From: Nymphaea colorata
Lineage: Eukaryota; Streptophyta; Magnoliopsida; Nymphaeales; Nymphaeaceae
Assembly (NCBI RefSeq): GCF_008831285.2
Contig: NC_045139.1
Coordinates: 29,553,206 to 29,617,205 of the forward strand
Length of the DNA: 64,000 nucleotides
Direction: 5' to 3'
The notes under the pieces are model-generated. The model saw only the letters and a list, made by a program, of their open reading frames with translations, searched no databases and had not been told where the DNA came from. The translations under genes were made by a program, and so were the position numbers. Below are positions 8,178 through 59,964 of this stretch, piece by piece (positions within the stretch are counted from its first letter, which is position 1; each line of letters starts with the position of its first letter).

Positions 8178-11100
8178 TTATAATCTTGTATCTGTCATTT
8201 CTTTCACATCGGTAACTGTTGCGTTGCAAAAGAAGCACCGTTGGCTATTCAGCAGGTGTCTACTTATGCAGCCAAAACATGATTTGTGATTGCAAGGCAT
8301 GAGCTGGCTGTCTGATTTGCATGCATAACAAATGCAGCAAATCACCTCGTCATCCTCTGCTATGCATCCTAATGAGCCTATGGTGTCCACTTCTCTTCTG
8401 CTTCTCAGGCAGCTTGCAAATCTCTCGAGCTTTTTGAGTCTAACAAATGGAATATTGCCCCTGAGCATGCCACCCTGGAGAAAATAGGCCGATAATACTG
8501 AGCAACAGCTGATAAAGATTTTCCATGGACAAGCATGAAATTGAATTCAAAACAGTAGACGTAACAGACCAATAGAAATACTGGATGCCTCAAATGAACC
8601 AAAGGAACCAACTTAACGATGCCTCGAAAAGAGGAACATGAATAGGTTTAATGCATAAAGAGGTGAACGCAGTTAAAATAGACCAGGAGGACCTGCTATA
8701 TCTTGGGAGCCTAACTAAAAATTACATATATCTGAAGGTCAGAAAGAACCTCAAATGAGCAGTTGAAAGCCTGAAAGGCTGAAACCTATCCATATTCATG
8801 TAACCTTGAAGTCTAGATGGGAAGTGGGTCTTGAACAATGTGGATTCTTAAGTATATCAGGTTATATTCATTAAAAAACCAGATTGAGTTTGTTTAGGCC
8901 CAAAAAAACTCTTGCACAAGAAATACAAAGACATGCATGGACACCATCTGGCTCTCTCTTATTCTTTTTCTTCATGAAAATACAAAGTGGTTCTTTCCCC
9001 TAATTCTGGAAATCAAGTGTGTTCAGATCCTGTCACTTCTTCTACCTTACATATATAACATGGGAAGTCTCCTAACTCAGACCCACTTATTCCATATCAG
9101 GTAACAGTATGACTATCTATATCCTACATTCGAGGCCCGACAATTTCCAAAAAGCATGGATGTCAGAGATTGGCATAATGTGCATCTTCCAAAGGCAGGA
9201 CTACCTTTCTACGTGCCTGATAGGATAGTTGAAGAGAAAAAACATAGGTCATTGATCAGTACTTTTGTCGCTTCAGAACATTTGACTTTGGTCAACTTGT
9301 TGGAGGTGACCGTAGGCCACTTAGGTCAGAAATAAGTCTGTATGAGGAAATTCATTAGAAATGGCTATTCTTGAAATCACAGATAGAAGCAAAGGTCTAT
9401 AAGTAGAAAATCCCCACAGTAAGATGGCTGAGGAAATAATGGCCCTGACTAGAGAGATCAGAACTAAACTGAACCGCGACGAGCTTGAAAAGGCAAACTT
9501 ATGAGCTGCCACAAAATGATCATGTACAGTTCCTCTAGAACGATTAGATTATGATGCATTCATCAGGTTTCCTTGTTTTTGAACCTCTCAATGTTTAGCA
9601 ATTAATAGAAAAGTTTCCTATTGATAAACAAAACAATGATAATAAGATTTTTTTTTTTCCTAGTATCTTCAAGTTATACTTGAAACAAGGCCAGAAAGCT
9701 CCAGTTCATCTTACATCCCTATATTACTGATAGCAGCATTAAAATCAGCAATTATTTGGCAAGTATATGAAGCAGGGGATATCACATCAAACTTGACGAG
9801 GCTGTTGATCTTCAGACTACTAAGATATTAGACAGCTAAGGTTCGTTCATCTTGTACCCCTAAATGGTCAATAGCTGCAGTTGAATCAGTCATTATTCTG
9901 CTAGTATGTGATGTAGGGATTTAACAACATCCTGTCAAACTTGACAAGGCTGTTGATCTTCAGATCACTTAAATATTAGACACGTGAATATTAGTGCATA
10001 TGACACTACAAGGTTCTGAGTTATTGAGTATCAAGAATCAACTGCTCATAGTAAATCAAAAGCAACTACTGTCACAAAGTGATACTTTAACAGTAATGAA
10101 CTCCAAAAGCCTCATTTCTTGAAATACTTACCCAATTGAAATCCAACAAATATTGGAATCCAAAATGGACAGTGGCAGCACAATCCATGCTTATAAAGAC
10201 TCCTACGATGTCATTCGGTTTTACTAGCAAGGGATCCTCACTTGCATCCACTAGGTTCAAAATCATTCCCACTAAAGGAGCCAAGATCATGGCTCTATTA
10301 AGCTTCTCTACAGATTGGCCATGTCGTCTAATCGACCTGCAGGAAACAAAATCATATAGCAATCAAAACGTCATTGGTTAGTGAAATGAAAAGATCCACA
10401 CGTTTACATTGCAAGTTCTCAATCAGTTCATAATAATTATCAGTTGACTAGCTGAGAATTTAGATAAAGTTGTTGATTAGCATACAAGCTTTATTTCATG
10501 TGCTGCCAGACCAATAGGCTCCAGATTAAAAAGTGCAAATGGGTATCAACATAGTCATCTCAAGATAATACATTGGAGTTATCATGTAAAATCATGGAAA
10601 GAACATAACCATAGGAATAAACTTACATATCAAATACTTCAACATCAATTGTTGAAGTCATCTGGTTGAGAATAAAGATGATCAACTCAATCAACCTCCG
10701 CAGATTCATGTCAGGTCCCGAAACAAACGCTTGAGGAATCTCATGTGTGAAGAACTCCAACACCCTTGCAAGATTGCAAGAGAGGTCAAATATGAGAGTG
10801 GATTTCCTTTGCTGCAACTCTGTAATCTACAAAAGATGTAAAAAAATTTAAGTATTCCTGCACATCCTTGATGTCAAAATGCAGTTAGAGATCCTGGGCA
10901 TTTTTTCTGATCAGTTGCACAACGATATCTGCAGCATCAATGGGGTGCATCTTACGGAACAAAATGAGGGTCTTCATGGGCACCTTTCAAGTTTCTAGTG
11001 ACAAATCACAAGGTAACAAGTAATAAGAGACGGTGCTGCAAAGTCAGCATTTACATTTTTTTTTCTTTTATTGACAAGCCAGTATGAAACATTGTCATTT

Positions 11101-14100
11101 GGTCCGATGACAGAGGTATTTGAACAGTGCAGTGGCCTGTGAGTATTGTAGTGAACTGAACAGTACATTATGATATCTTCCATAACTATGAAGGAAACTG
11201 ACATGTTACAGCCTGAAACTAGCTTCACAAGTGTAACTATACAGTATCAGATATAACCCATGATAAATATATCTTGCATAGCGGTACAACTCAATGGGGT
11301 GCATCTTAGTCAAGACGAAAGAAAGTTTTTTTCCAACTTAAAAGGTACAACACTTTACTAAGGCTGAATATTAAGTTTTTCCATGCAAGGGATTCTTAAT
11401 GAAAGTAAAATAAATAAAATTTATGTATATATGATCTTACGCAACAAAATTAGGGTCTTCATGCTATATTTACCCTCCAAATAAAAATTTTAAGTTTTAT
11501 GAGCATTAAGTTGTTTCAAGACTCCAACAAATAAGTCATATGCAAAAAAGTAATCTATTTGATACCCATTAAAGTATTAAGAGTAATAAAAGTGGTCACT
11601 TTAATTATTTCCAATGAAAACATGCATGTTCTGTAACTTGTAGGCAGTATATGGTTGTTATTTTGTTATGTTTATGCAACTCATCTTTTTCTATGGAGAG
11701 CATTTTTTTCCTAAATTTTTATACTTTTTGTGGGTTTCACTTATTTAAAAAAAAAAACTATATATTATTTTAAATATGGAAACTAAATATGCAACTTTTT
11801 CATGCTAACTTTGCACCCAACCAGGGGTTAGGTTACACTCTTACACCATCAATTTGTACCGCTGATACAAATGAAATGGAGATAAACAGCAGTTAAAGGT
11901 GCTGTGTCAAATGAACTACTAAATCTTTTACTAGTCCACCAGCAGATTGTCAATAGCCACATTAAAATAATAGTAATAACTTGGCATGGAAAAAAAAAAA
12001 AGCACTGAAACAGTAAAAGAATTCCACAATACAACTAAAATTCTTCACTCCAGGCTAACATGCAAGAAAGTAAAGTTCTTATATAGAATACAAGTATTTT
12101 ACGTAGTTGTAAAAGGTAATGCATACACTAAGTTGTCATGACAAGGCAGAATCACCCTGTTGACCAGCTCAAATAACTGAGTCAACCCAGATCATCCTGA
12201 CTCACTACAATTTCAATCATAGCTTCCGATTTGCTGCCTGGATTCAAAATTTAGGCCAACAAATATCAGAAAATTACTTAGGCTGTAAACACAAGACTTC
12301 CCAGACCTAACATGACAAGCAGGCTTTTGAACATGAGTCATGAAGAGTGCACTGCGTGCTTCAGGTATGGCAAACTAACCAAATAATTTTCTCTCATCTC
12401 TCGGATAGAAACTGAAAATTCCGTTATTGTCCAGCTCAGAGTGTTGAATAGCCGATTAAGAAAAGTAGAGAACAATTCCTTATCAAGGAGGCAGACTTCC
12501 TTTAATAAACCCTATAAGAAAAATCCAGATATAGCATCAGCACTTGGTGAGCAAGAAAGGGAAAAAGAGAAGGAAAGAGCATATTTTGCAACATGCAACC
12601 TCAGCCAAATTTACTGTTCTCTTCCTATTGCTCAAACTAGGTACCTGAAAACGAACTGATGAAGATTCCCCTTGTTTTGAAAATCCAAATCCAGAACCCT
12701 TGCATAGTCGTAGAAGTATGTTCGTAACAGGAATCCATGATCTATCGTCAAATGCAGAAAGCAAAGCAAGGGGCATTCTCTGAAGAGCTGCTTCATTGTT
12801 CTCAAAAGCAGCGAAATAATCTTTATACTGTACTAGGACAGATATTGAATGGAGCAGGACATCTCTTAGATCAGCACTTGATATTCGAGGATCGTTGAAA
12901 TGTGTGACCACAAAAGTAACCTATTAAAAATGAATAGGAAACCTTAATATTGATTTTAAGCATTTCAAAAGACAGATGGCTAGACTAACAAGGCAGATAC
13001 TAAATGAAAGTTGAATGCATTTCACTGTCTTTCGAATCATTATTTCATGCAAATACACAACGCTACTGAAAACAAGGACACAGAAATGTTTTGTTCAATC
13101 AACCGAGCAATTAAGTTCCTAAAGCCCCATTAGACTACATAAAAAATAAAGACACTAACTGAGTTCCAAATAGTAGATTCAAGTATTCAACCATTTCAAG
13201 TGCACATAATGACCTAAATGAACATTAATGTACTAGACTACTAGTGAATACTAGCCCAATTTGCTAATGCAAAAAAAATGAAACTACATTTGGAATATTT
13301 TTTATTTCTTCCGTCTGATAGAAACAGAAATTATTAAACCAGATGCACAATATGACTAAGCTCAAAAAAATATAAATAATAGAATCATCTTCAAGCCATA
13401 TAATATGAAAATAAAGAATGTGAAGATATCATAATCAACTTGTAACAACATAATTAACTAAGCTATAGTTATCGTACAAATGAAGATAATCCTTGCTGCA
13501 GGAAAGATGCCGACGAGACAAATGGTGGATCACTTCTTCGTAGAGCATGGAAGCAATCAACCTGAAACAAAGTAAAAAAAAAAAAACATTAGGGGAGAAA
13601 AAAAAACATTCCAAAGGTATTATGGGCATTTAATATGAAAAATCAAAATTTATGGCACAATCTGCATCTCATGATTGATGCTGTAAAACATTCTTATTTC
13701 TTATGCAGTTTTGCTACACACAATGCATCCTGACTTTGTACCTCTCAATTCTCTCCCATAAGGTATAAAGATATTTTTGACAAATTTATAAGCAACATAT
13801 TGATTAGGTCAACTCCAATAATTACATATATCACAATCATACTAACTGCTTCTCATCTACCAGTAACACATGTTTACCTGTTTCTGTCAAAAGATGAGGA
13901 GGAAGAAAGAGAGAAGAAAAAGAAGAAGAAGAGCACTGAACATTGTTTAGTGTAGAAACATATAAACATATTTAGAGTATGAATAACTTGTAAATATGTT
14001 TTTTGAACGCACCAAAAGCACCCTGCACCAGTACCTGGATGTACCAGCACTGGTATGGGTATGTATTCCATTTTAACAATCCACATATACACTAGCAACT

Positions 14101-17100
14101 AAAATATCATGATGCAGATCAAGAACACACATACCAATGCTTCTAAATAAAATTCTGGTACATAAACAAAAAGTGAATCTGTTCTGCTAAGGACCAATAG
14201 CAATTGAGCAATCCACATGCATGCAGCATACATTCCTCTCTGCTTCCACCTGGAAAATAGAGAGACACGATACCTGGAGACAATCATACTAAACATGTCA
14301 GAAAATAAGCCAATTCACGCTTGTGACTGAACACTTCTAAAGCCACTGTAGGACAGGATAATGCCAACAAGATATCAGGAAAACAGAGAGCAACTATTTC
14401 AGCTAGATACTAAAGGTTTCCCCAGAAGCCAAAACAGCAAAAGAGATATTGTTTAATAAATGAAAACTCATAATGGTCAAGGTAGAAACAACAAGGATGG
14501 AAACAAAGGCATAAAGTTTGGCAGCATACACCTGCTATACAGTTCAATAAAGAAGTGACGACAGTAAGCGAGGTTACAGGTAAATAATGTATGAAGCATC
14601 AAAGAAATAAAATTATCAGAAAACAGTTCACTTAGAAGAATGCTAGGTGTTCAAAGCAAGTAGAAAATAAAATATAATAGATCAAACTTATAGAGAAAGA
14701 AATAACAAGACAGCATAAAAGAAGACCTTCAATGTAAATAGATTACTGTATCTAGGTTCTATTTGGTAACAAGATGGTATCCTTTAAATAAGGGATCGCC
14801 CGTTGGATTGGCGAAAATTTGATGATAGAACTACGAGTCGAGGTCTGAAATAGACAAGCACGTATTTGATTAAACATGTTATAACTTATAACCCAAAACA
14901 AGACATAGGGATCTATATTATAGACGGCCAAGTGCCAAGAAAGAAGGAAATAGTGTAGTGACTCAGCACATGTAGGTGAAGGTTCACAATTGGATGCATC
15001 TGATTTGTAGATGCATACAGTAAGCCTTGATGATCAACGACATAGGAAAAGATATTGTATAAAGTATGTTTAGAAAGGCTCGTTGATAGATTGAAAAAGA
15101 TCCCGTATATCAAGCAGCAAGCCTAGGGAAAAAAGTATACATGGCATATTTCCCAGGATAAGAAAAGAAATGGGGGACCATTTCACAAGATACAAATATG
15201 CTAAATCAAATGACAGGAAAATATCCACGCGAACTTGTCGCGAAGTAGAAAGTTGATGGAAAGAAAATGACATATAAACAAAAGAAGAAACATTTTGACA
15301 GGTGAATCACGTCCACACTACACTCAACCATGTTTAACCCAGAGAATAGCAAGTTGGAAAGTGAACACACAAATTCATCGATCTACATCATATCATGTTG
15401 CTTAATTTCCTAGATTTGAGTACGCATGATTCTTCGTGGGCCTCATACCATAATATGTTTTTCATAACACTGCAGATATCTTTTCAGGACAAGCCTGTCA
15501 AACTCTCAGAAGCAAATGAAAAATGAACACTAAATGGGATGAAAAGAACTAAGGAACTCATCACCAAATAGAGGCCTAATAATGCAAACCAAAATTTGAC
15601 TACATTTTCTGGCTGAAAAGAATGACAATATCAAAATTGCATCATAATCAATAACTGACCTAGAATGGCATGACACCTAGTCCATTTTCTCTCTTGCCTT
15701 TTTCTTGAATTTCACCCAGTTTCCACATTAAATGTTTCCTGTCCCCAACTATTGTCTTCAATAATATTCACCAACTTAGATTTGGCATGTAAAAGAAATA
15801 AAAAAAATTCTTAGCTACTGATTGATGTCCATAATGATTTTGTGTTTCCCTTTTCATATGCCTGCACTTGTTCCTCTTCTTCTAGTATTTTTCTCCTCCA
15901 CAAGCTTTATTAGCAATATTGTAGATTGTGTCAGACACTCATGTTGTTGGGAAGTTGGACACATAATATCAGTGTTGTACGTATCGTACGATACGGAGCC
16001 GCACCATACGATATGTATCGTATCGAACGTAAAATACGATACGATACACCCCCTGTATCGTACATTTACGATACATGCACCGTATCGTACGATACGGACA
16101 CGATATGACTACGATACGATTACGATATGGTTACGATATGTTACGATATGGAAAGATACAGGTACGATATGGTAATTTTTATTTATTTTTTATTATTTTT
16201 TGAGAATTTTTTATATTTTTTCTGATTATTTAAAAAAAAAACGATACGATTACGATACGTTACGATATTTTACGATACAGCGTATCTTAAAGCCAGACCG
16301 ATACGGCTTACGATACGCTTTTTACAACATTGCATAATATCATACAAAGTGAAAAATCAGAAAAAGTTTTTTAGATATTAAAAATCCACAAAAAATTAAG
16401 AAGTCAAAAAAATACAAAATAATAACAAAAACTTACGAAAAAGTACTCTCTACGAAAAATACAAATTACATGAACATAAGAAAATAACAAATATATCAAC
16501 ATGCACTCTTTCATTAGAAAGAGTTGCTCTTTGGAGTCTTTAAGCAATTTACAGTCACAATTTGAATTTTTATTTTAAATTTTTGAGAACAAACATAGAC
16601 TCTCATAAGAAGAAACCATGAAAGCTCTAGTTTTATTACATGAAAATCAACCCTACATTTTACTTTTTTACTTTAAATGTGTAAGAATATCTTTCACATT
16701 GAACTTAATATTCAATCTTAAGAAATTTATGTAATTTTAGATAAGGAAAACTTCTTGATACTTTTCCATGTTTTCAAGGCGCAATATAAGTTACACCCTG
16801 TACAGTGTATACTACAGTACTATACAATATGGAGAGTGTATCACAAGCTACTTACATCTGATACAGAATAGTTACACCTTTGAAACTAGCTTCAAGGGGG
16901 TATCATATTGTTTTCTTTCATAGTTACATTATTTAATGAAAGTATCTTCGATATGCTATGTTACATACAATGCTATTTATTGGCTTAAATCTTGTGTTCC
17001 AAGCAGAAGGAATAGTAATGGTTGAAAAAAGGTTGACCCAAGATCCAAAGCGATACTGACTAATGAACCACATGCTACTGAAATTTGAAAAGCTGCATAA

Positions 17101-20100
17101 AATGATGAAATAGGGAAGAAAGTATAATTTAGTATAGAGATCATCATTCATCAAATTATGAATTACCCAAAGACTTATTACCAAAACAATCACTTGTCAA
17201 TGTGAATGACAATGGAATATAAAGGAAACTTCAAAGCTTATACACAAAACAAAACGTTCAAATGTTACTAGATAATAGACTCCTACTGTTGGCCATAATC
17301 ATTTACCATGCACAGTGTCTCACACAGTCAACTAGTTCCTCCCGATAAGCATTTCGGACTTCCTTCAAATGCTTTAGCTGTTCAGCGCAATTCCTTTCTG
17401 ATCTTATTTGTTTATCAGTTTCTTCCAACAGGGAGATCCATTGTGACTGATGCGACATATAATGAGATGCCTACATCCAATAAAATACCTTGTGAAGACT
17501 CATAATGATAAATGTGTTAAAATACACTCCAACAAAGTCATGGCTTTTATCTTATACAGACACTTTGGCTACCCAAACAAAGTAGAAAATGTAACCAAAA
17601 GCCAGCAAAACATCAATAGCCACATAAGATAAAAGCCAAATTTGCAAAAGCATGCATCAGCAACAGTAGCAAAGAAAGTTTGCCTATATTTTGAGGGAAC
17701 CCCTTGTAGACATAATTATTTTGCATCTTTTACAACCCACCAATTGCCATGTATGACAGGGTAAGAAACAACCATGAGAGACAGAGAAAGAAAAAAACCC
17801 AATAACATCTTTAACGCACATTGACTAGCATCACAATCATTTCTAGTGTTAAAAGTTATTTGCAATATTTTAGCAACAGAGAAGTAGCAAGTCACCTGCT
17901 TGAAATTTGGAGCAAGACCAAGATGATACAGCAAGAGCATAGCATCCAAAAGTTCCTCCTCTCGTAGAGTTTCTGAAGATGCATGACTAGCCTTTGGCAC
18001 ACTTCTGTTACACTGCACAGGTCGATAACCAAAGGCAGGATTGGACTGACCACTCGAACTAGGTTTATCAACAATCTCATCATTCAGACTACTAGCACTG
18101 CACTCTGAAGCAACATGTGCTGATCTCTCAGGAATAGCAGTACAGTGAGCCTTAGGACTTCTAGAGACAACCTTAATGGGATTCTTTCCAACTCGGCCTA
18201 AATCAGCATCAGCACTAGCACAACAACATGGCTTCTTTCTAGTGCTGTGTGTTACTCGTGTCCCTTTGCTGTCCATGGAACCTTCCTCCCATTGAACTAG
18301 TTCTTGTTCACTATCGTTGATTGGATAAGATTTTATCAAATGGCTAAATGTCCCTCCAAGTCTAGCAAAATCGATGTGAAGGGGATCAGGTCTAAGAAAC
18401 AATCCTACAGGGAAACTTTGCTGACCACCTCTGTGAAGGAATCCTTCACTAGCACTAGCTTTTGAACCTGCAGTTATTGGACTCCTCATACGTTCAGAAA
18501 TATCGCCAAGACCAAATCCTTCTGAAAGGAAATGAAGAATAACTGTGTACACAGAGACAAGAACAGAATTGCTTGAAAATCCAGCAGCGGGCACCTTACG
18601 ATCTGCAGCTCTAGCCTTCAATATAAGGTTCTGCAGGAAATCTCTAAAAACTGATCCAGATGACTGGGATGGTGATGATGGAGGTATAAATTGTATGACC
18701 AACCTGCAAACTTCCCGTTGCATCTCCTCAACCTACAAATGGAACAAGAAAATATTATAACATGAAGCATAAATAGCACTAATAAACAGGATAGAGCTAA
18801 AATTTTGCACATACAGAAGCTTTCATAAACCCCCATTATGCACAAAATTATATGGGTTCATTTAAATTTTAAAGATAAACACATCTTGAATACCTTTATA
18901 TATCTGTTTCAGAAAATCACAGCCATCTGCAATCCCTTGATATAGTATGAATAACCAGTTGCACCAAAAGAAGACAACAAGTAACAAAAATAACACATCA
19001 TGCAAAAAGACAACACTATAGGAAGAGAAAAGAAAACTCAACAGAGAATAAGAGAACACCTAAAATATGCAAGAAAGTAAGGAAAAGTATCTAGCAGTAA
19101 GGCCAGAAAGCTTCCATCAAATGCATAGCCAGTAGAAGTGAAGGAAGGAAAAGATGGCAGGTAACATCTGTTATGACCTCTAGCATTCAAGAGCAGTTCC
19201 AATTAAATTAATTGATATTGCTTTAAGAGAGAGACAGGAAGCTATTGAATAAGATGAGTTTAGAATGGTTTCAATCAGTATGATTCTTGTTACCTTCAGA
19301 ATGACAGGTGCAAAAGGTCTCCGTATCTGTTGTCCCAGTTTGACATAACATGACATTCAAAATACAGATAAGTTCATTGTTTTGAATTATATTCTAAATC
19401 AAATAAGCAAAAACTTTTGTATGGCTAGATACTCAAAAAGCATGAGCAAGGGGACATTATCACAGCTATAAACCCTGTACTCTCTGTGTGTATGTGTTTG
19501 TAACTTTGTATGGATATACACGCTATGGCACTTCAGGAAAATGACCAAACATGGGCCATTTAGGTATGCATATTTGTTGCAACTGGTAAGTTGTAACAGG
19601 TACACAGGATCCCCAACTTTTGGCATTGTTATGTTCCACCAACACACAGAATAGGTTGTACACAATAGTACAAGAAATAATTTGTGATACAATTTCAGGT
19701 GTCCATATTTCTATTTTGTAATTGGTGCAAAAGCTCCACATTTTCAGTATCCACCAGAAAAAGACTAAGTTGTAGTGGTACTTATGGTAATGCATTCTTA
19801 TGAGTATAATCATGAATAACCAGCAAAGTATAGGATGCAGATTTCACGTGATGTGTCACCAACAAGGACAACAAGATATACAATTGCAATCAATTATAAT
19901 AAGCAAAGAAATCACATCATATTGTTTTATAAAAGATAACTTTTCCAAATATCAACTTAGGGAAAGAAATTCAAATCAACACAAATTAACAGCTCAAAGT
20001 TCAATAACGTGCAATGCTTCATATAGATAAAATCCATGCATCTTAGCAAAGAAAGTACCTTACTGATTGCATTTGACAATGCTGTTGTTGTCAATGTCAT

Positions 20101-21609
20101 ACTAGACTCCGAAGATGCATCCTCACAAGATCCAGGCCACCAAACAGCTGGCATAAAGCACTGTAAATCATGCTTGTTTGGGCCTTTTCTTGAAAGTAAT
20201 CCTTCCAAAAGAAACTCAAAATCTGGAGACTTCCATAGCTGCAACATCAGTTCTTCTCGCCTCAGAAGATAAGAAGCTAATGCAAGGTAAGGGTATGGCC
20301 CAGAATAAGGACAATCCATCAGCACTAGAGGTGCAGTTTTGCAACCACAAGCAAGTGCATGTAACACATGTCGAAAGATCAATTCAAACTGTGGAAATAC
20401 CATAAAGTGATCCAAAATTCTGCCCAGACTTGAGTAGTCATGGGGCGGTTGCATCCCAAACACTTCTAGAAAGAATGACATCAATGGGCCTCGGCCAATA
20501 TACTCTAAAGCCCCTGTCATTTTGCCAAATGCAGAGAAAAACTCTTGGCAAGTAGCTTGACAGATTGGATTGAAAACTTGCTCAACTGAAGCAAACCTCC
20601 TCCATCTTTGAAAATTGTCGACTGATGTGGAAGCAGAAGTATCTGCACAGTGTAACTTTACTAGCCTGAATAAGCAACGGAGAAGGTAGGTAGCAACAGT
20701 GGCAGCTGAGTCCAACTTCCCATCATAATTAAAGGCAGGAGCTGCTTGGATTGGAAGGAATCCATCAATAGCATACCTAAAAGGCCTGGAGCCAAAATTA
20801 AGGTCGCATCTCTCGCCTTGTGATAAAGAAAAAGCTGGGTAATATCCAACCCTGGGCTCCATCTTTCGCACTTCGTCAAATGCCACACCAAGAGAAACAC
20901 CATTCCTGTAGAATGAGATCTCATCCAAGTCCAAATCTATGCAGCATCCTATTACATCCCCAACAACCCATGGTTGCCCATACATCTCTGGGTCCTTATT
21001 CCACTTACTAATTCTCCTGCCATCATAGGAATAGGAGTCATCAGCATCCCCCACACCCTTAAGATCAGTAAAAGGACATGAAACAGTGGCCCAACCAAGC
21101 TGCTGAATGCCGGCTGTTTCCAATATCACTTCATACATCCATTTCCCTTTCCACATGCAAGCATTAGCACGGGCACTGCTAAAAGGAGCCATGCTCTCTA
21201 CCAGCAGCGGTTGCTTAGAGATCCTAATGTCCCCGCAAATACTAGCCTCATCAATAACAACCTCACTGGCACCACATCCATTGTCAAAAATGAAGACCCC
21301 GTCTCTGTCACCCAATTTTACTTCTCGCTTTGCAAGCAACCTTTCAATTTCTCTTCTCAAGGTTGACTGCACAAAGCTGACATCTACAGTACTTGTTGGT
21401 AAACGGATAGACCTAAAGGGCAGGTCAAATATATACTCAAGCATATGCTCAACTGATCGCGAACTGGCATCATCACAACTCGAAACAAGATGAGCTTTCT
21501 GAGATTTGTCCTTCCGGCCTTCACTGGCCAATAAAACTGCCAAACCCGAAGAAAATCCAGATTTTCCATGTAGATGATTGAAGCCAAACTTTGAACCTTC
21601 TTCTGCCAT
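8178..21609 (-). CDS. RKP: RKP/KPC1-type E3 ubiquitin-protein ligase (SPRY + RING)
   Basis: Plant homologue of the KPC1 (RNF123) ubiquitin ligase. In Arabidopsis, RKP promotes ubiquitin-dependent turnover of the cyclin-dependent-kinase inhibitor KRP1. Ten coding exons on the minus strand: 21609-20059, 18732-17896, 17470-17307, 14273-14135, 13561-13478, 12920-12645, 12511-12380, 10826-10627, 10336-10132, 8474-8178. All introns are GT-AG and all phases agree, giving 1294 residues, close to the Arabidopsis protein (about 1280 from memory). The start is the ATG at 21609; the codons before it lack another ATG. The SPRY domain is at about residues 150-275 (KGKWMYEV, QQLGWAT, GDVIGCCIDL, FYRNGVSLG). 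A C3HC4 RING lies at about 1242-1279, with C-x2-C, C-x-H-x2-C-x2-C and C-x2-C all present. Conserved middle blocks include SLFSRWKQRGMYA and RSWIPVTNI. No frameshift or missing zinc ligand was seen. Introns hold a hAT-like MITE and a tandem duplication (listed separately). Identification is from family memory; the splice model is read from sequence. Confidence 0.95.
9706..9990. repeat. Diverged tandem duplication in an RKP intron
   Basis: Two direct copies of about 145 bp, near 9706-9846 and 9847-9990, share CATCTT, a GCAG..TGAATCAG-like stretch, CAAACTTGAC.AGGCTGTTGATCTTCAGA and AATATTAGACA. The offset is 141 at the left end and 148 at the right, so small indels have accumulated. It lies wholly inside the last RKP intron. 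Confidence 0.7.
15970..16332. mobile_element. hAT-like MITE rich in CGATACG motifs, in an RKP intron
   Basis: A 363-bp element begins CAGTGTTGTA and ends TACAACATTG, so the ends are inverted repeats (CARTGTTGTA). It is flanked by an exact 8-bp target-site duplication, CATAATAT, at 15962-15969 and 16333-16340. Eight-base duplications with CA..TG ends are typical of the hAT superfamily. Both arms are packed with CGATACG/CGATA and their complements (more than twenty), separated by an AT-rich centre (about 16170-16235). No transposase frame is present, so it is non-autonomous. It sits in the RKP intron between the exons ending at 17307 and starting at 14273. Confidence 0.85.
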
Positions 21610-22165
21610 CAAATTCACCTTCGAAATAACAACGTCCCCTCCTTTGCCTCAACTAAAAGAAGAAAAGCTACTGGCCCGCAGGCTGCAGCCAAAACGTGCA
21701 TTCTCCTCACTTACCCAATTTCAGATTGGACCTTCAATTCGACTCTGTCTAGTACCTAAAAGAAACTAAATACCAACAACCTCAAGTTAATCATTTCCAT
21801 TTGAATCACAGCCCCTAATAAATCATCAATATAACAGTTAACCAAACAAGAACAAAACTAGCACCAGTAAGTTCCACCAAACGAAAATCAAATGAATGGT
21901 GCGAAAATTACCAGTATCCAATAGCTATTATTAGTTAATCAATAACCTGACTCAAGAACAACAAAAAATGAAAAACAAAATCTATTCCAGCCCCGATCAG
22001 AAATAGAGGGGAAAAAAATCAAACTCCCCACAAAACCAGTCCTTGAATTCGAAATTAGTTCTTCCACAATCAAATTCAAACATCATCAGCAGATTTCTTG
22101 ATTTAAAACCTCAACTTCAATAAACGAGAAAAAGGAAAATCAAATAGCTCCACAACAAGACTCAC

Positions 22166-24935: not shown

Positions 24936-25117
24936 GTGACGGTGCCGCTTCTTCCTTCCTCTCTATTCTCACATTTCTTGTCACTGTGCATTGTATTGTA
25001 TATTTCGTCTTTTTGCTTTTGTTTTTGCGGATTGCTTTTGTATCTAGGGGACGTCTTGTCCCCAAATTTTGTTATATATTTCCCATTTTATCGGCTCTTT
25101 TTCTCTCTCTCTCTCTT

Positions 25118-25265
<148 letters not shown>

Positions 25266-30938: not shown

Positions 30939-31104
<166 letters not shown>

Positions 31105-31891
31105 TGGCTTGTGGATGAGACTCCGGAAAGAAATGACTTACAGGTTACAGCACGCGGAAGTCATGTGGTGCTAGGAAATACATTATAATATTGCCAAACT
31201 GAATGAGGAATTTAACAAGTTGACTTAGTTGATAAATAAAATAAAGATACAATGTGTGAGAGAGAGAGATAGAGAGAGGATCATACCTTCTGTGATTCCG
31301 GAACAAAAATTGTATAAAAATGGCTCCCAATACTAAATACCCATCATTTTTATAGCAGTGCTTTCTTTTTCTTTTTCCTCGACCAACACACACTTGTTAT
31401 TCAAAGCCTACGAAAGATAACAAGAATTAAAAAAATAGAGGAATATAGAGTCGACAATGGAAGCAATACAAACACGAATAATCCATCTAACAAGAAATCC
31501 CTATTAAGCGTTGCCCACATTCTTCAACCACAATGTTGTAACCTCTTCCAAAAGGTGATCGCTACAGAACCATTCTTTGAAGCAAGCCTTTACATGTACC
31601 GTGAAGCCATGCCACGCAAGAATTGGATTCCATTTATGCATCCCTCAAGCCATCTCTTCCATCCGTGATTATTCAAAGCACATAGTTCAAATTAAAAATT
31701 TTACTTAACATATCATTTTCGGGTGAGCAAGAGGATCAAGACCCATCGCTCAGAAAATAGCTAAAGTCTCCTCTCATAGTCTAAAAAGAATGTGTACAAC
31801 ACCTTAGCAGCACACTGCTTTTCCCTTATGTCGCAAAAGCATAGTGCCCATGAAAATCAAATCTTCATCTTTCCCATATCACCAATTCAAC

Positions 31892-42095: not shown

Positions 42096-42722
42096 CTAGT
42101 TCACTTGCCCACCGCCTCCCACATCTATCCCTGGCCGTTTGGGTCCTCTTGTGAGCATCACACCAAAATTCTCCGTCGACCCACCATTTGCCTTCACCAA
42201 CAAAACATAAAACTCATCACTACAGAAGAGCCGATCGCAGACAGTTCTTTCTTTCTTATGCTATAAATCTTTTCGCTTTATACAGACACTGTTTTTCAAG
42301 TGAACACCAAATTTTTAAAGAGAGTTGTACGAAAATATGCTCGTAAAAGAAAGAGAAAGAGAGAGATGGAGGTAGAAAGAGAGAGTACTCACTCTGGTTT
42401 TGGTTTCATCTTCTTCTTCAGGTTCTTCACTGTTTCTGGTTTCGGTTTGGCCAACTTCTTCTTTCTTCCTGGTTTTGGTTTCATCTCCTTCTTGATCTTC
42501 ATGTACTTCTCTCTTTCTAGTTGTGGTTCCATCTTCTTCTTGTTCATGTTCGCCTTTCTTTGAGCGACCATCAGTACAATCTTCACCAAAGCCAAGATGA
42601 TAAACCAAACAGCCCCAGACGCCTCTCACTACCAGCTCAAAACAGGAGCAGGTGGACCTGAGGAAGGCCATGGGAGAGGCCATGGACGGCCGTGATTCTG
42701 CTTCGCCGGTGCCGCCGGCCAT
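42096..42722 (-). CDS. PROPEP-like precursor of a plant elicitor (danger) peptide
   Basis: PROPEPs are small cytosolic proteins whose C-terminal peptide is cut out on wounding or infection and perceived by PEPR receptor kinases. Exon 1 is 42722-42393 (ATG in GAGATGGCC, 110 codons) and ends at a strong AGA|GTGAGT donor. Exon 2 is 42212-42096 under my preferred acceptor (148 residues in total). Family features seen: a hydrophobic/Cys N-terminal segment (STCSCFELVVRGVWGCL) like the amphipathic motif of PROPEPs; a long Glu/Lys/Thr middle with repeats of DETKTR; a basic, Pro/Gly-rich C-terminus MLTRGPKRPGIDVGGGGQVN ending Gly-Gln-x-Asn, as AtPep1 and AtPep6 do. Neighbours fit: Arabidopsis PROPEP6 also lies between a DUF617 gene and RKP. 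Acceptor choice is uncertain: TCTTCTGTAG at 42220 puts TGA in frame at once, while sites 7 and about 29 bases on keep the peptide in frame. Family call rests on these features, not on a search. Confidence 0.68.
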
Positions 42723-43199
42723 CTCACACTCTCGGGGCTTCTGATCTCTCACTAATACAGGGGCCTTGATGGTCGGGGAGACTCTGTTTTTCAGAGAAGC
42801 GAGTCAAGTGACTCGTAATTTATTACCAATGAATGCAGGCCGCTGGACCACACCAACTCTCTGTGCATCTTCTGCTCGGCCTTCTAAACACGTAGTGCGT
42901 CGTCTGACAAATTTTATATTATTCATTTAACTCTTTCCCCTGCCTTTCCTTTTGTTCTTAAATGCTTTTTGACTGAGATTTGATACCTAGAGAAGCGCAT
43001 AACATGAATAGGACGCAAGAATAACAGCTTAATTTTTAGTGCGCTGAGGGTGTGCAGGAGCTTGTTACGCCTCGGCGCACGTGTTACTGTTTGCCGGTTC
43101 CATCGCCAGCCCGTTTTCATCGGTTTTTCAATTTTCATCGCTTTTTTTTTTTAGTGTGGGCGCGCGCTCACCCTGTACACACACTCGTATATGCTCATT

Positions 43200-44359: not shown

Positions 44360-45001
44360 GTTGTCGATCTAAAATAAATAGATGGTTGAAAGAAAAACCA
44401 TAAGAAAATAGATAAACCAATACTTGATGACGAAAATGATCATAATTTTTTTCTTATTATATTTTTCTTTAACTGTACATCATGTTGAATCAAACAATGA
44501 CCCTAAAAAACTAAAGTAACCATTCAATATATATATATATATAATATATAAAATGTGGTGCTACAGTAATTCAAGTACGATTGTGCAAGATAAGATCCAA
44601 CCCAACTCATATGAGAAGTCTAAATGGGAAATCAACAATTGCTGACTATGTGTGAGATCCTGACTCCCCTGAAAGCAAGGTCAGTCCTTCAAACCGCAAC
44701 AAACTAAACAACTTCCTTCATTCTCTCTCCTCCCTTCTTTTACCACCCTCACAGCATCACCTTTACACCAGGCCTCTCTCTCTCTCTCTACTGTTCCAAA
44801 TATATCTCTCCCTCTCCAATCCATCGTCCCTTTTGTTCACCTCTCTCTCTCTCTTCAAAGCAAAGTTTGATATGTTCTTTACAGACCGTTATTTCTCATA
44901 CATAACATAACACAGGTCTCTAACACCTTTCTCTCTCTAACTTCCGTTCCATCTCTCCTTGTCTGGAAACTGAGAATGGTACTCCATTGTTGAGGTTGAA
45001 G

Positions 45002-45835
45002 ATGGGACACAAATCAACGAGCACGGTGGCCCCAACCGATGGGCCGAGCGACTGCGCCTCCACCTCCACCTCCTCCGACGGCCCACCGGCATCCTCCGCC
45101 GACGAGGGCCCACAGGCATCGCCACCCGAGGCTCCGCCCCCACCACCCCGGCCCCAGGTCTCCCTCCTCCAACCCTCCCAAAAGAAGCGAACCAAATCGG
45201 TCAAGATGTACCGCCTCTTCCGATCCGTTTTCCGAACCTTTCCCATCATAAGCCCCGGTTGCCGCCTCCCCACCGTCCTTCCCGGCGGTCCTTCCCACCA
45301 TTCCGACGCCCACCTCGTGGGCGGTACGCGGGTCACCGGTACGCTCTTCGGGTACCGGAAAGGCCGGGTCAGCCTGGCGATACAGGAGGCGCCCAAGTGC
45401 CTGCCTCACGTTGTCATCGAGCTGGCCCTTCAAACGAACTCGCTGCTCAAGGACATGTCCTCCGGGCTGGTACGTATCGCCCTCGAGTGCGACAAGCGGC
45501 CGGATCGGACCAAGCTGCTGGACGAGCCGCTGTGGACCATGTACTGCAACGGGAAGAGGGGCGGGTACGGGGTGAGGCGCGAGCCCAACGAGGAGGACCT
45601 CAACGTGATGCAGCTGCTGCAGGCCGTGTCCATGGGCGCCGGCGTGCTGCCTAGCGTTAACGCGAACAATAACAGCGCCGGGCTCTCCGAGGCGGACGCC
45701 CAGGACGGCGAGCTAGCCTACATGCGAGCCTACTTCGAGCGTGTTGTGGGCTCCAGAGACTCGGAAGCCTTCTATATGCTTAACCCGGACGGCAGCAACG
45801 GGCCTGAGCTTAGCATCTTCATGGTTAGGATATGA
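45002..45835 (+). CDS. MIZU-KUSSEI 1-like protein (DUF617)
   Basis: MIZ1 is needed for root hydrotropism in Arabidopsis and associates with the endoplasmic reticulum; this is a member of the same DUF617 family, not necessarily the hydrotropism gene itself. Single exon, 277 residues. The start is the ATG at 45002; the frame upstream offers only TTG codons. Residues 1-66 are low-complexity (Ser/Thr/Pro/Ala, a run of six Pro near 45-49). A conserved basic segment KMYRLFRSVFRTFP (about 68-81) precedes the DUF617 domain at about 108-277: GTRVTGTLFGYRKGRV, HVVIELALQTNSLLKDM, LLDEPLWTMYCNGKRGGYGVRR, AYFERVVGSRDSEAFYMLNP. The length is near that of Arabidopsis MIZ1 (about 297). The gene is visibly GC-rich with C/G third positions, unlike the AT-rich flanks, which is usual for intronless DUF617 genes. 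Confidence 0.93.
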   Translation: MGHKSTSTVAPTDGPSDCASTSTSSDGPPASSADEGPQASPPEAPPPPPRPQVSLLQPSQKKRTKSVKMYRLFRSVFRTFPIISPGCRLPTVLPGGPSHHSDAHLVGGTRVTGTLFGYRKGRVSLAIQEAPKCLPHVVIELALQTNSLLKDMSSGLVRIALECDKRPDRTKLLDEPLWTMYCNGKRGGYGVRREPNEEDLNVMQLLQAVSMGAGVLPSVNANNNSAGLSEADAQDGELAYMRAYFERVVGSRDSEAFYMLNPDGSNGPELSIFMVRI

Positions 45836-49956: not shown

Positions 49957-50044
49957 GCCCTAACCGGCCTTGTCCTTGGACTACTTAAAAGGGAGGAGAA
50001 ACCAAACTTTCAAAGTTCTCTCTCCTTCTCTTCAACGATCAGCC

Positions 50045-51388
50045 ATGGCTGCTGCTTCAGTGGCATCTCAGTCATTCTTCTGCGAGTTGCAGCAGAAACC
50101 GGCGTCCCCTAAGAAGGACTTGGCCGTTACACGAGTCCGAATCCCGGACGCGTCGTCGCCGGAGAACAGTAAGATCATGCTGCAGCCGAGACTATGCAAT
50201 TTGAGAACTTATGGCGCTCCGAGCAGTGGCTTGTTGAAAGCAAGAGAAGACTCGCGTGTCTCTCCCTTCTTCGATTCTCTGTCTGCTTATATCGATAATT
50301 CAAGGAAAACCGAGTTCGTCGAGATCCTGTCCGGTCGTCTGGCCATGGTATTTCTTCTCTCACTCCTTTTTTATTTTATCGCATCTCTGGTACTTCTCTG
50401 TAGATTTCTTGGCCCACAAAACGCAGGGTTCTATCAATTTTAGTTTATCGAAGTCTGAGTGTAGGGTTGCTTTTCATTCTTCTTGCTCTTAGGAGGTGCC
50501 CAGGTAGAACGGAAAAGAAAATCAACCAGAAATTTAGAAGCTATTCACAGAATTCATGCTGTTACAGAACACAGAATTCCCCATCTCATTTTGTGTTGGT
50601 AGAAACTATAAACACCTCGAAGTTTCTTGATATTTACTGAAACCATCCTCCTAATTAGTTAGGTAAAAGAAAATATGTTCTTTGGTAGACCTCAAATTCA
50701 ATTCTCTGAGAGAAGAAGTCAGCTACCAAAGTTCTATTGAAGAACGAAGAGATTGAGGGTTCGTCTTGTTTTTCCAATTTTTAATTTCTTCTGTAGTTTC
50801 TATGACACCAGGATCTGTCATCTTCATCTTGTCCTTTTTACGTTCACTGTAAAAAAAAAACTCCCGCAGAAGATTCCTTTCATGTCTTCGAAATTTCAGG
50901 TACAGCATATGAGCGTTTATTTGGCAAAGGAAATCGAGTTTAGAATATAGGGAAAGACCTTTTACTGGGCGGGGGAAACAAAAAATTAAGAATCTGGCAT
51001 TTTACTGCTGTTTTGTATTATTGGCAGGTTAGATTCCTCACTAGAAGAAAGTGATTCAGTAAAAGCAAAGACATGACTGAAACTTTATGATCTTTCACTG
51101 TTTTTTGGTTGAGGGCAGATAGCATTCGCAGCAGCAGTAGGGGTGGAAATGGTGACGGGCAACTCCTTGTTCGGGAAGGTGGGGATGCAGGGGATAGTAG
51201 AGGGAGGTGGGCTGTGCCTGGGAGCCGTCGCGTGTGCCGCTACTTTTGCCTTCTTGTCGACGGCCCGGACCAGGGTGGGCAACATCTTCACCTTGAGCTG
51301 CAACAGCTTGGTCGACTCCCTCATCGACAATCTAGTGGACGGGCTCTTCTATGAAGATGACTTTCAGGACTGGCTGGATGACATATAA
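50045..51388 (+). CDS. SEP2: Stress-enhanced protein 2-like (LHC superfamily)
   Basis: Thylakoid protein of the extended light-harvesting superfamily; Arabidopsis SEP2 rises under high light and is thought to help photoprotection. Two exons, 50045-50347 and 51119-51388, joined in phase 0, 190 residues. The start is ATGGCTGCTGCTTCAG, in a good plant context. Residues 1-45 form a Ser/Ala-rich, acid-poor plastid transit peptide. A conserved KIMLQPRLCNLRTYG-like block follows at about 43-57, then SPFFDSLSAYID. Helix 1 carries the chlorophyll-binding-type motif E-I-L-S-G-R-L-A-M (about 93-101) and runs on into IAFAAAVGVEMVTG; the intron falls exactly after GRLAM. Helix 2 is about GGGLCLGAVACAATFAFLS. 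The C-terminus (FTLSCNSLVDSLIDNLVDGL) is the diagnostic SEP2 tail. Intron of 771 bp, GT-AG. Confidence 0.93.
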
Positions 51389-59091: not shown

Positions 59092-59858
59092 GCAGTAAAG
59101 AAAGTAAACTTGAGAATGATTTATCACAAGTCAGCACAATAAATTGTGAAGATGATAAATGGAAATAAAAAGAGGCTTCCATATGTAAATAAAATACCAT
59201 CACTGCAGCAATCCCACAGAACCGCAATTTTGTCAAATGCGGATTGACCAAGAAGCCTCAGAGGCACACTACATTGAATCTCATTCAACCGAATTTATTT
59301 GATAGCAGAATCTTATGCACTAGATTTAACAACTGGAGACGGACCAGACAAACAACCTTAGTTCCAAATGCTAAAGCGACACCAAGAACAGGAAAATGCT
59401 CAATCTCAAAGAGAATTAAAATGAAAAGGGTGCTTCCAATGCTGAAATGTAGTTCAACCCAGACCAAAACGCAGCCAACAGAATAGGCTCCACAATCAAA
59501 TTTTCACCTGCCAGACCGAGCAACCAGTGGAATGCAGCCAATCCAAGAAGCGGAACGCCTCGGAGCCGAGATCGCCAATGCCATGGGGGCCCGTCAGGGA
59601 GCTAGGATGAAGCAAGATGCCGGCCCTTCTGCGGTCCTTAGGATCCTTCCGGGGGTACCACTCTCCGTAATCCGCCGGCAAGTCCTCGCCCACGGCGAAC
59701 TGTGAGACGTCACGCAAAGAGCTGCTCGTAGCGGCCAGTTTGAATCCTCGCCCTGTTTTTAGGAGAAGAGAGAGGCCTTTCCTGAATTGGGGTTGCTTGG
59801 TGGCTGGTGGGGAAGATGGGAGTGGGCAGAGAGAGTGATGATGAACGGAGAAAGCCAT
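53169..59858 (-). CDS. DPE1: Plastid 4-alpha-glucanotransferase (disproportionating enzyme 1, GH77)
   Basis: Transfers glucan units between maltooligosaccharides in the plastid stroma (maltotriose to glucose plus longer chains), acting in starch breakdown. Sixteen exons on the minus strand: 59858-59508, 58960-58898, 58378-58290, 58196-58136, 57744-57666, 57026-56890, 56777-56619, 56531-56455, 55514-55375, 55279-55248, 55181-55107, 54623-54551, 54427-54339, 54136-54092, 53819-53667, 53273-53169. All are GT-AG and phases agree, giving 575 residues against 576 in Arabidopsis (from memory). Residues 1-50 are a Ser/Pro/Lys transit peptide. GH77 landmarks follow in order: LLHPSSLTGPHGIGDLG, DANCGNTLLISLEELV, IMGDMPIYVGYHSADVWAN, the nucleophile Asp-372 in RIDHFRGF, acid/base Glu-419 in IIAEDL, Asp-472 in GTHDNDT, and MNTPAT near the end. 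All three catalytic acids are present. A GRKGGEDG-type insertion replaces the shorter PDEGG in exon 2. Single-copy and apparently intact. Confidence 0.96.
59038..59088. repeat. Compound (CT)n(TA)n microsatellite in DPE1 intron 1
   Basis: CT run followed by TA run, about 50 bases in total, inside the first DPE1 intron. Confidence 0.88.
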
Positions 59859-59956
59859 TCTCTGCAACCAACAGAAAATGGCGACGGGGAAGATATGTGT
59901 GGGGGAGAAAGAGAGAGATAGAGAGAGCAATTCACATGCCTTGGGTTTCTGGACGG

Positions 59957-59964
59957 CTTATATT
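59957..59964 (-). promoter_or_regulatory. TATA-like site of DPE1
   Basis: AATATAAG on the minus strand, about 100 bases upstream of the DPE1 ATG; the stretch between is GA/CT-rich. Weak match to a TATA box. Confidence 0.35.

What the first reader, a model, noticed from the sequence alone, without database searches (positions are those of the whole stretch)
42096..42722. A PROPEP (danger-peptide precursor) gene hidden in two short exons
Neither exon would pass a simple length filter, yet together they give a 148-residue protein with the layout of plant elicitor-peptide precursors: a hydrophobic/Cys N-terminal motif, a highly charged repetitive middle and a basic Pro/Gly-rich C-terminus ending G-Q-V-N. 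AtPep1 and AtPep6 end G-Q-x-N. The predicted peptide has Gly-Gly-Gly-Gly where the Arabidopsis peptides have Ser-Gly-Arg-Pro-Gly, so it may define a divergent ligand class with its own receptor specificity. Position next to a DUF617 gene and near RKP matches Arabidopsis PROPEP6, as I recall it.
Basis: partly seen in the sequence, partly recalled or inferred. Interest (0 to 1): 0.86.

Follow-up and report, generated by a model that had tools for sequence, protein, structure and literature searches.

The report
Waterlily danger-peptide precursor gene (PROPEP)

Summary
The gene is real and is best read as a PROPEP (precursor of a plant elicitor peptide, Pep) of the waterlily Nymphaea colorata. 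Lines that agree: a 16-residue N-terminal block shared with eudicot and grass PROPEPs; a C-terminus ending GGGGQVN; a phase-0 intron leaving a last exon of 31 codons, as inferred for several other PROPEPs; last 31 residues identical in N. thermarum while the linker differs; a strong PEPR-receptor match in the same genome. An HMM of 71 other PROPEPs gives 30.7 bits; the best of 40,000 shuffles gives 12.0. A grass-only HMM does not recognise it (2.1 bits). It lies between RKP and DUF617 genes, the order I recall for Arabidopsis PROPEP6. The 'divergent class' argument fails: GGGGQIN ends an active peach Pep and Turnera and Oxalis precursors. Asp-Val just before the glycines is what stands out. 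Expression, processing and receptor activation are untested.

The parts
42393..42722 (-). Exon 1: start codon, N-terminal block and charged linker (residues 1-110)
   Evidence: Translation equals P0001; donor AGA|GTGAGT
42606..42653 (-). N-terminal PROPEP block TCSCFELVVRGVWGCL (residues 24-39)
   Evidence: Best of 53,879 six-frame 16-mers against a PSSM of 69 other PROPEPs, 0 of 20,000 shuffles; ungapped in alignment A3
42393..42572 (-). Charged linker, residues 51-110 (13 K/R, 22 D/E), holding four degenerate 32-nt direct repeats
   Evidence: charge; repeats at 42394, 42436, 42469, 42517
42192..42392 (-). Phase-0 intron, 201 nt, GTGAGT...GAAG
   Evidence: the 141-aa database protein requires it
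42096..42191 (-). Exon 2: 31 codons plus stop, ANGGSTENFGVMLTRGPKRPGIDVGGGGQVN
   Evidence: 31 of 31 residues identical in N. thermarum P0002
42099..42167 (-). Predicted Pep, last 23 residues FGVMLTRGPKRPGIDVGGGGQVN (mature N-terminus not known)
   Evidence: C-terminal decamer is the best of 3,823 stop-anchored decamers; 4 to 11 of 23 positions identical to 14 other Peps
44987..45832 (+). Neighbour: DUF617 (PF04759) gene
   Evidence: Pfam E 4.5e-68
8181..21648 (-). Neighbour: RKP-type E3 ligase gene (RKP_N and SPRY at 19960-21648, RING at 8181-8546; the exons between were not modelled)
   Evidence: RKP_N E 5.9e-48, SPRY E 1.3e-28, zf-C3HC4_3 E 2.6e-7

Best explanation
The locus is a PROPEP gene of Nymphaea colorata, probably of the PROPEP6 lineage. 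Exon 1 encodes an N-terminal Cys/hydrophobic block and a charged linker; exon 2 encodes the peptide. By analogy with Arabidopsis, damage would release calcium, type II metacaspases would cut after a basic residue (for example after R110 or R125), and the C-terminal 16 to 31 residues would leave the cell and bind the LRR groove of the waterlily PEPR, anchored by Gly135 and the terminal Asn141, to switch on pattern-triggered immunity. Shown here: gene structure, sequence relationship to PROPEPs, constraint on exon 2, presence of a PEPR-like receptor. Inferred: expression, cleavage, release, binding, signalling, and descent from the same locus as Arabidopsis PROPEP6.
For: HMM of 71 PROPEPs without Nymphaea: P0002 33.0 and P0001 30.7 bits (best single domain of P0001 22.0), best of 40,000 shuffles 12.0, and apart from the exon-1 frame itself (21.1) no window ORF among the 26 rows shown. 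Eudicot-only HMM: 27.0 and 27.6 bits, within the range 9.2-37.8 of 29 held-out grass sequences; best of 10,000 shuffles 12.6. N block and C block each rank first in the window. Intron phase and last-exon length match those inferred for other PROPEPs. Exon 2 unchanged between two waterlilies: 0 of 31 against 8 of 23 in the aligned linker, Fisher P 4.7e-4. PEPR-like receptor at G000:C3:14660780-14663668: 917 bits, 49% identity, next 632 bits, 41%; its best solved-structure match is AtPEPR1 5gr8, 651 bits against 462 for the next. Neighbours RKP and DUF617.
Against: A grass-only HMM gives P0001 2.1 bits, below the best shuffle (12.5), though P0002 gets 18.2; a Brassicaceae-only HMM gives only 15.3 and 16.6 against 11.5. 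Pfam Pep1_7 (PF17232) does not match P0001 or P0002 and its genome search did not report this locus; maize PROPEP1 P0025 also goes unmatched. The profile search A4 did not list the waterlily at E<=10. Asp133 replaces Ser15, which is needed for AtPep1 activity (PMC4526913). No expression or activity data.
Confidence: 0.9

Rival explanations
1. It descends from a PROPEP, but the peptide no longer signals through PEPR: Asp-Val in place of Ser/Gly-Ser/Thr abolished binding, and the protein has another role or is drifting.
For: Asp133-Val134 is not found in the 39 C-terminal decamers used for the PSSM, which carry S or G, then S, G or T, there. Changing Ser15 of AtPep1 to Ala nearly abolishes activity (PMC4526913).
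Against: Exon 2 is identical in two waterlilies while the linker differs, which argues against drift. Tomato SlPep6 and the grass Peps also lack Ser15, so that place varies between families. A PEPR-like receptor is kept.
Confidence: 0.08
2. It is a PROPEP, but not the positional counterpart of Arabidopsis PROPEP6; the shared neighbourhood is coincidence or misremembered.
For: The Arabidopsis gene order (At2g21990 DUF617, At2g22000 PROPEP6, At2g22010 RKP) is recalled only; a paper search for these locus tags gave two hits not about it. PROPEP trees are poorly resolved (PMC11289955 passages).
Against: Both neighbours are firmly identified here, and among the five AtPeps compared AtPep6 is the closest to the waterlily peptide (8 of 23 identical positions; the others 4 or 5; AtPep2, 4 and 8 not compared).
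Confidence: 0.2
3. It is another kind of small signalling precursor whose peptide also ends in Asn (RGF/CLEL, IDA, CEP or PIP type).
For: RGF1 also ends in Asn and is read by an RxR motif of its receptor (PMC6749341 passage).
Against: By inspection residues 1-16 are hydrophilic and show no secretion signal, and the family motifs as I recall them (DY of RGF, SPSKR of IDA, SGPS of PIP) are absent. The N-terminal block and the HMM score point to PROPEPs.
Confidence: 0.01
4. It is a chance pair of open frames, not a gene.
For: Both exons are short, and the NCBI entry is an uncharacterized protein whose transcript support I could not see.
Against: A homologue in a second waterlily with an unchanged last exon; two motifs in order on one strand that each rank first in the window.
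Confidence: 0.01

Closest known systems
Eudicot PROPEP6-type precursors (Turnera P0016, Oxalis P0020, walnut P0042, pear P0015, Arabidopsis-group P0022)
   Same: N-terminal block [PT]C-x(2)-[FCL]-...-CL, charged linker, C-terminal GxGGQ[IVN]N; intron ahead of the peptide inferred from truncated entries
   Different: SS or ST before the conserved Gly where the waterlily has DV; block ends KCLG(L/Y) where the waterlily has GCLVYHLG; these eudicot entries match Pfam PF17232 and the waterlily does not
Peach PpPep1
   Same: Ends GGGGQIN, 9 of 22 aligned positions identical in the ungapped comparison
   Different: TT instead of DV; precursor sequence not seen
Maize PROPEP1 (P0025) and other grass PROPEPs
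   Same: N-terminal PCSLLQLLLRACAGCLV against TCSCFELVVRGVWGCLV; not matched by Pfam PF17232 in the maize case
   Different: Extra residue in EGSGGNGG and His ends; a grass-only HMM does not recognise P0001
Arabidopsis PROPEP1/AtPep1 (P0003)
   Same: CLDQTLRAILKCL aligned without gap to CFELVVRGVWGCL; Gly17, Gly20, Gln21 and Asn23 kept
   Different: Only 4 of 23 Pep positions identical; Ser15-Ser16 replaced by Asp-Val
AtPEPR1 (PDB 5gr8) and the waterlily receptor at G000:C3:14660780-14663668
   Same: 49.8% identity over 707 ectodomain columns against 35.6-41.0% for nine other waterlily LRR kinases
   Different: Arg487 column kept, but also in 6 of those 9 controls, so not diagnostic; binding untested

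Membership tests
PROPEP / plant elicitor peptide precursor | N-terminal Cys/hydrophobic block | tested here: met
   21.1 bits, first of 53,879 six-frame 16-mers; 27 of 69 accepted PROPEPs score lower in leave-cluster-out scoring, at least two of them probably mis-registered by the script
PROPEP / plant elicitor peptide precursor | Peptide at the extreme C-terminus with Gly17 and terminal Asn23 | tested here: met
   G135 and N141 invariant in A1; decamer first of 3,823
PROPEP / plant elicitor peptide precursor | Highly charged variable linker | tested here: met
   13 K/R and 22 D/E in 60 residues
PROPEP / plant elicitor peptide precursor | Phase-0 intron shortly ahead of the peptide | tested here: met
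   Last exon 31 codons; 6 of 21 truncated entries (P0072, P0074, P0079, P0091-P0093) turn into V at a point 30-36 residues before the C-terminus of a full-length relative, 4 more (P0080, P0086, P0089, P0090) at 29-30, P0012 at about 42, the rest uninformative. Read from proteins, no DNA of those species seen
PROPEP / plant elicitor peptide precursor | Overall profile similarity | tested here: met
   30.7 and 33.0 bits against 12.0 for the best of 40,000 shuffles; not recognised by the grass-only profile
Pfam PF17232 (Pep1_7) | Match to the curated model (26.2 bits) | tested here: not met
   P0001 and P0002 no match; maize PROPEP1 P0025 no match and Urochloa P0028 15.7 bits, so the model does not define the wider family
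Brassicaceae-type Pep | SxGxxxxxN | tested here: not met
   Asp133 in place of Ser; SlPep6 and grass Peps also depart from it
Pep-PEPR system | A PEPR receptor in the same genome | tested here: met
   Best of 42 scored among 2,745 candidates, 917 bits against 632 for the next; best solved-structure match AtPEPR1
PROPEP6 locus | Position between DUF617 and RKP as in Arabidopsis | tested here: inconclusive
   Waterlily neighbours shown; Arabidopsis order recalled, not confirmed
PROPEP / plant elicitor peptide precursor | No N-terminal secretion signal | not tested
   No predictor run; first 16 residues hydrophilic by eye
PROPEP / plant elicitor peptide precursor | Induction by wounding and PEPR-dependent elicitor activity | not testable with these tools
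   No reads, no assay

The most novel reading that the evidence does not exclude
The RKP-PROPEP-DUF617 interval is the founding PROPEP locus of flowering plants, still in place in a waterlily and in Arabidopsis, so that gene position can settle the disputed kinship of Peps that sequence trees cannot; and the waterlily ligand, with Asp-Val in the Ser15-Ser16 places, pairs with a PEPR whose matching pocket changed with it.
Probability: 0.4. Interest if true: 0.6.

Novelty: new member of a known kind. Interest (0 to 1): 0.42.

Why it matters
Peps differ so much between plant families that their orthology is disputed (PMC11289955; PMC12893677; passages). A waterlily member, with its receptor in the same genome and flanked by RKP and DUF617, gives an early-branching reference point and a positional anchor for the family. 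If the peptide works, the Pep-PEPR alarm was present by the split of Nymphaeales from most other flowering plants, and the Asp-Val change makes the co-evolution of ligand and receptor directly testable. I found no description of a waterlily PROPEP in the held open library: searches (listings only for most hits); subscription papers and the supplementary tables of PMC4526913 were not seen, so an early-branching PROPEP may already be listed there.

Tried and rejected
Divergent class because of GGGG: rejected. A second waterlily PROPEP: P0001 against the genome gave only its two exons and two weak hits, E 4.8 and 5.6; PF17232 gave one sub-threshold hit (18.9 bits) in low-complexity sequence, rejected. 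A search with the Turnera precursor never ran, so single copy is not established. Arg487 as proof of receptor identity: rejected, since 6 of 9 control kinases carry it. W boxes: two in 1 kb upstream against 0.9 per kb over the window, not telling. Bacterial-type promoter scan: not applicable to a plant gene.

Rows dropped before counts: of 92 non-Nymphaea proteins fetched, 71 were kept for the HMM by a script rule on the C-terminus and 21 dropped, mostly truncated entries; the rule let in P0088, which ends at an intron, and dropped P0009, which has a full C-terminus. For the N block 69 of 71 had a usable CL; for the C block 39 of 71 (grass type and tailed ones left out). Of the 92, 27 first came from a search whose query included Nymphaea, the other 65 from one that did not.

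Full report
What is there. On the minus strand, exon 1 runs from the ATG at 42722 to 42393 and exon 2 from 42191 to the stop at 42096, joined over a 201-nt GT-AG intron. The translation, 141 residues, is identical to P0001, an uncharacterized protein of Nymphaea colorata, so the window is taken to be that species. A first protein search scored 16 candidates and returned two: N. colorata P0001 and N. thermarum P0002. P0002 has 103 residues and skips the stretch that follows KRE in N. colorata. An alternative donor at 42506 in N. colorata would give exactly such a 103-residue form, so that difference may be one of gene prediction.

Constraint. Over the comparable parts, the two waterlily proteins differ at 2 of 49 N-terminal positions, 8 of 23 linker positions and 0 of 31 exon-2 positions; linker against exon 2, Fisher P 4.7e-4; all aligned exon 1 against exon 2, P 0.03. 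The N. colorata linker holds four degenerate copies of a 32-nt repeat.

Relationship to PROPEPs. A profile search seeded with both waterlilies, AtPROPEP1 and published Peps returned 29 proteins, among them AtPROPEP1, PROPEP6s and maize PROPEP1. A second profile without Nymphaea returned 80, from Brassicaceae, Malpighiales, Oxalis, walnut, pear, Solanum, Stephania and grasses; it did not list the waterlily at E<=10, and only the 7,970 candidates sharing most words were scored. In alignment A3 the waterlily STCSCFELVVRGVWGCLVYHLG falls without gap on AHPCSLLQLLLRACAGCLVRLL of maize, YSPCSLFEHAIKAFLKCL of pear and IPLQCLDQTLRAILKCL of Arabidopsis.

Statistics. An HMM of 71 non-Nymphaea sequences scored P0002 33.0 and P0001 30.7 bits (best single domain 32.7 and 22.0), the frame holding exon 1 21.1, and the best of 40,000 shuffles 12.0. 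Held-out tests: eudicots only (42) 27.0 and 27.6 with shuffles up to 12.6; without Brassicaceae (40) 25.6 and 35.3, shuffles 11.1; Brassicaceae only (31) 15.3 and 16.6, shuffles 11.5; grasses only (29) 2.1 and 18.2, shuffles 12.5, so the grass profile does not recognise P0001. Block tests: the N block ranks first of 53,879 16-mers and the C block first of 3,823 stop-anchored decamers, the latter with only modest support on its own (296 of 200,000 shuffles).

Gene structure. Truncated database entries that appear to read from exon 1 into the intron let the intron be placed in other PROPEPs. In P0072, P0079, P0074 and P0091-P0093 the sequence turns into Val (GTN, phase 0) 30-36 residues before the C-terminus of a full-length relative; in four Brassicaceae-type entries at 29-30; in a PROPEP1-type entry at about 42. 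The waterlily has phase 0 and 31 residues. This is read from proteins; I saw no DNA of those species.

The peptide. The last 23 residues share, ungapped, 11 positions with walnut (tail removed), 10 with Oxalis, 9 with Turnera and with peach PpPep1, 8 with AtPep6, PpPep2 and Stephania, 7 with tomato SlPep6 and pear PbePep4, 6 with pear PdrPep6, 5 with AtPep3 and AtPep5, 4 with AtPep1 and AtPep7. GGGGQIN therefore occurs in Peps of several orders, one of them active (PMC8132438, passages), and rice OsPep7 also carries GGGG (PMC9055822, passage). The odd feature is Asp133-Val134. In AtPep1, Ser15 to Ala, Gly17 to Ala or loss of Asn23 nearly abolishes activity, but SlPep6 has Gly at 15 and ZmPep1 His at 23, and families have their own motifs (PMC4526913, abstract and whole Results section). 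Perception across families was not seen there, yet two pear Peps trigger ROS in Arabidopsis and not in pepr1/2 (PMC13148170, passages). AtPep1 binds LRRs 4-18 of PEPR1, with its terminal Asn held by an Arg in LRR 18 (PMC6749341, passages).

Receptor. With AtPEPR1 as query (ectodomain checked against 5gr8) the genome's best match is C3:14660780-14663668, 49% identity over residues 1-971 of the query, with the kinase end at C3:14660303-14660632 (55%); next best 632 bits; 42 of 2,745 candidates were scored. Its ectodomain is 49.8% identical to AtPEPR1 over 707 columns against 35.6-41.0% for nine other waterlily kinases, and its best solved-structure match is PEPR1, 651 bits against 462 for GSO1.

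Neighbourhood. RKP (RKP_N, SPRY and a RING) lies on the same strand at 8181-21648, about 20 kb away, and a DUF617 gene at 44987-45832 on the other strand, 2.3 kb from the ATG. A paper search for PROPEP with synteny returned two hits, listing only, neither of which looks like a synteny study of PROPEPs by title and abstract.

How it would work. Metacaspase cleavage and PEPR signalling follow from the Arabidopsis system as I know it; PROPEP1, 2, 6, 7 and 8 fusions sit at the tonoplast (PMC10902123, passages). In the waterlily, R110 directly before exon 2 and R125 sixteen residues before the end are candidate cut sites; N. thermarum has KRE before exon 2, so R110 itself is not kept in that gene model. 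Nothing about expression, cutting or activity was tested.

Verdict. A new member of the PROPEP family in an early-branching angiosperm, with a likely receptor.

Noticed in passing
42394-42548: Four degenerate copies of a 32-nt direct repeat in exon 1 make up much of the charged linker; linker growth by local duplication may explain its variable length.
   Followed up: partly
42799-42816: Palindromic GCGAGTCAAGTGACTCGT about 80 nt upstream of the ATG contains a W-box-like TTGAC.
   Followed up: no
1378-1842: AP2-domain (ERF-type) open frame on the minus strand, Pfam E 6.3e-13.
   Followed up: no
59499-59957: First exon of a 4-alpha-glucanotransferase-like gene (Glyco_hydro_77, E 3.7e-7) with a transit-peptide-like start (the transit peptide is by eye).
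   Followed up: no
49964-50440: Open frame with KTEFVEILSGRLAMVFLL, which looks by eye like a one-helix LHC/stress-enhanced protein, but no Pfam match at E<=1.
   Followed up: no
25000-25265 and 30950-31130 (approximate): Long (TA)n microsatellites, seen as YIYIYI runs in the translations.
   Followed up: no
L008 (G000:C3:14660780-14663668): Waterlily PEPR-like receptor kinase, the expected partner.
   Followed up: yes
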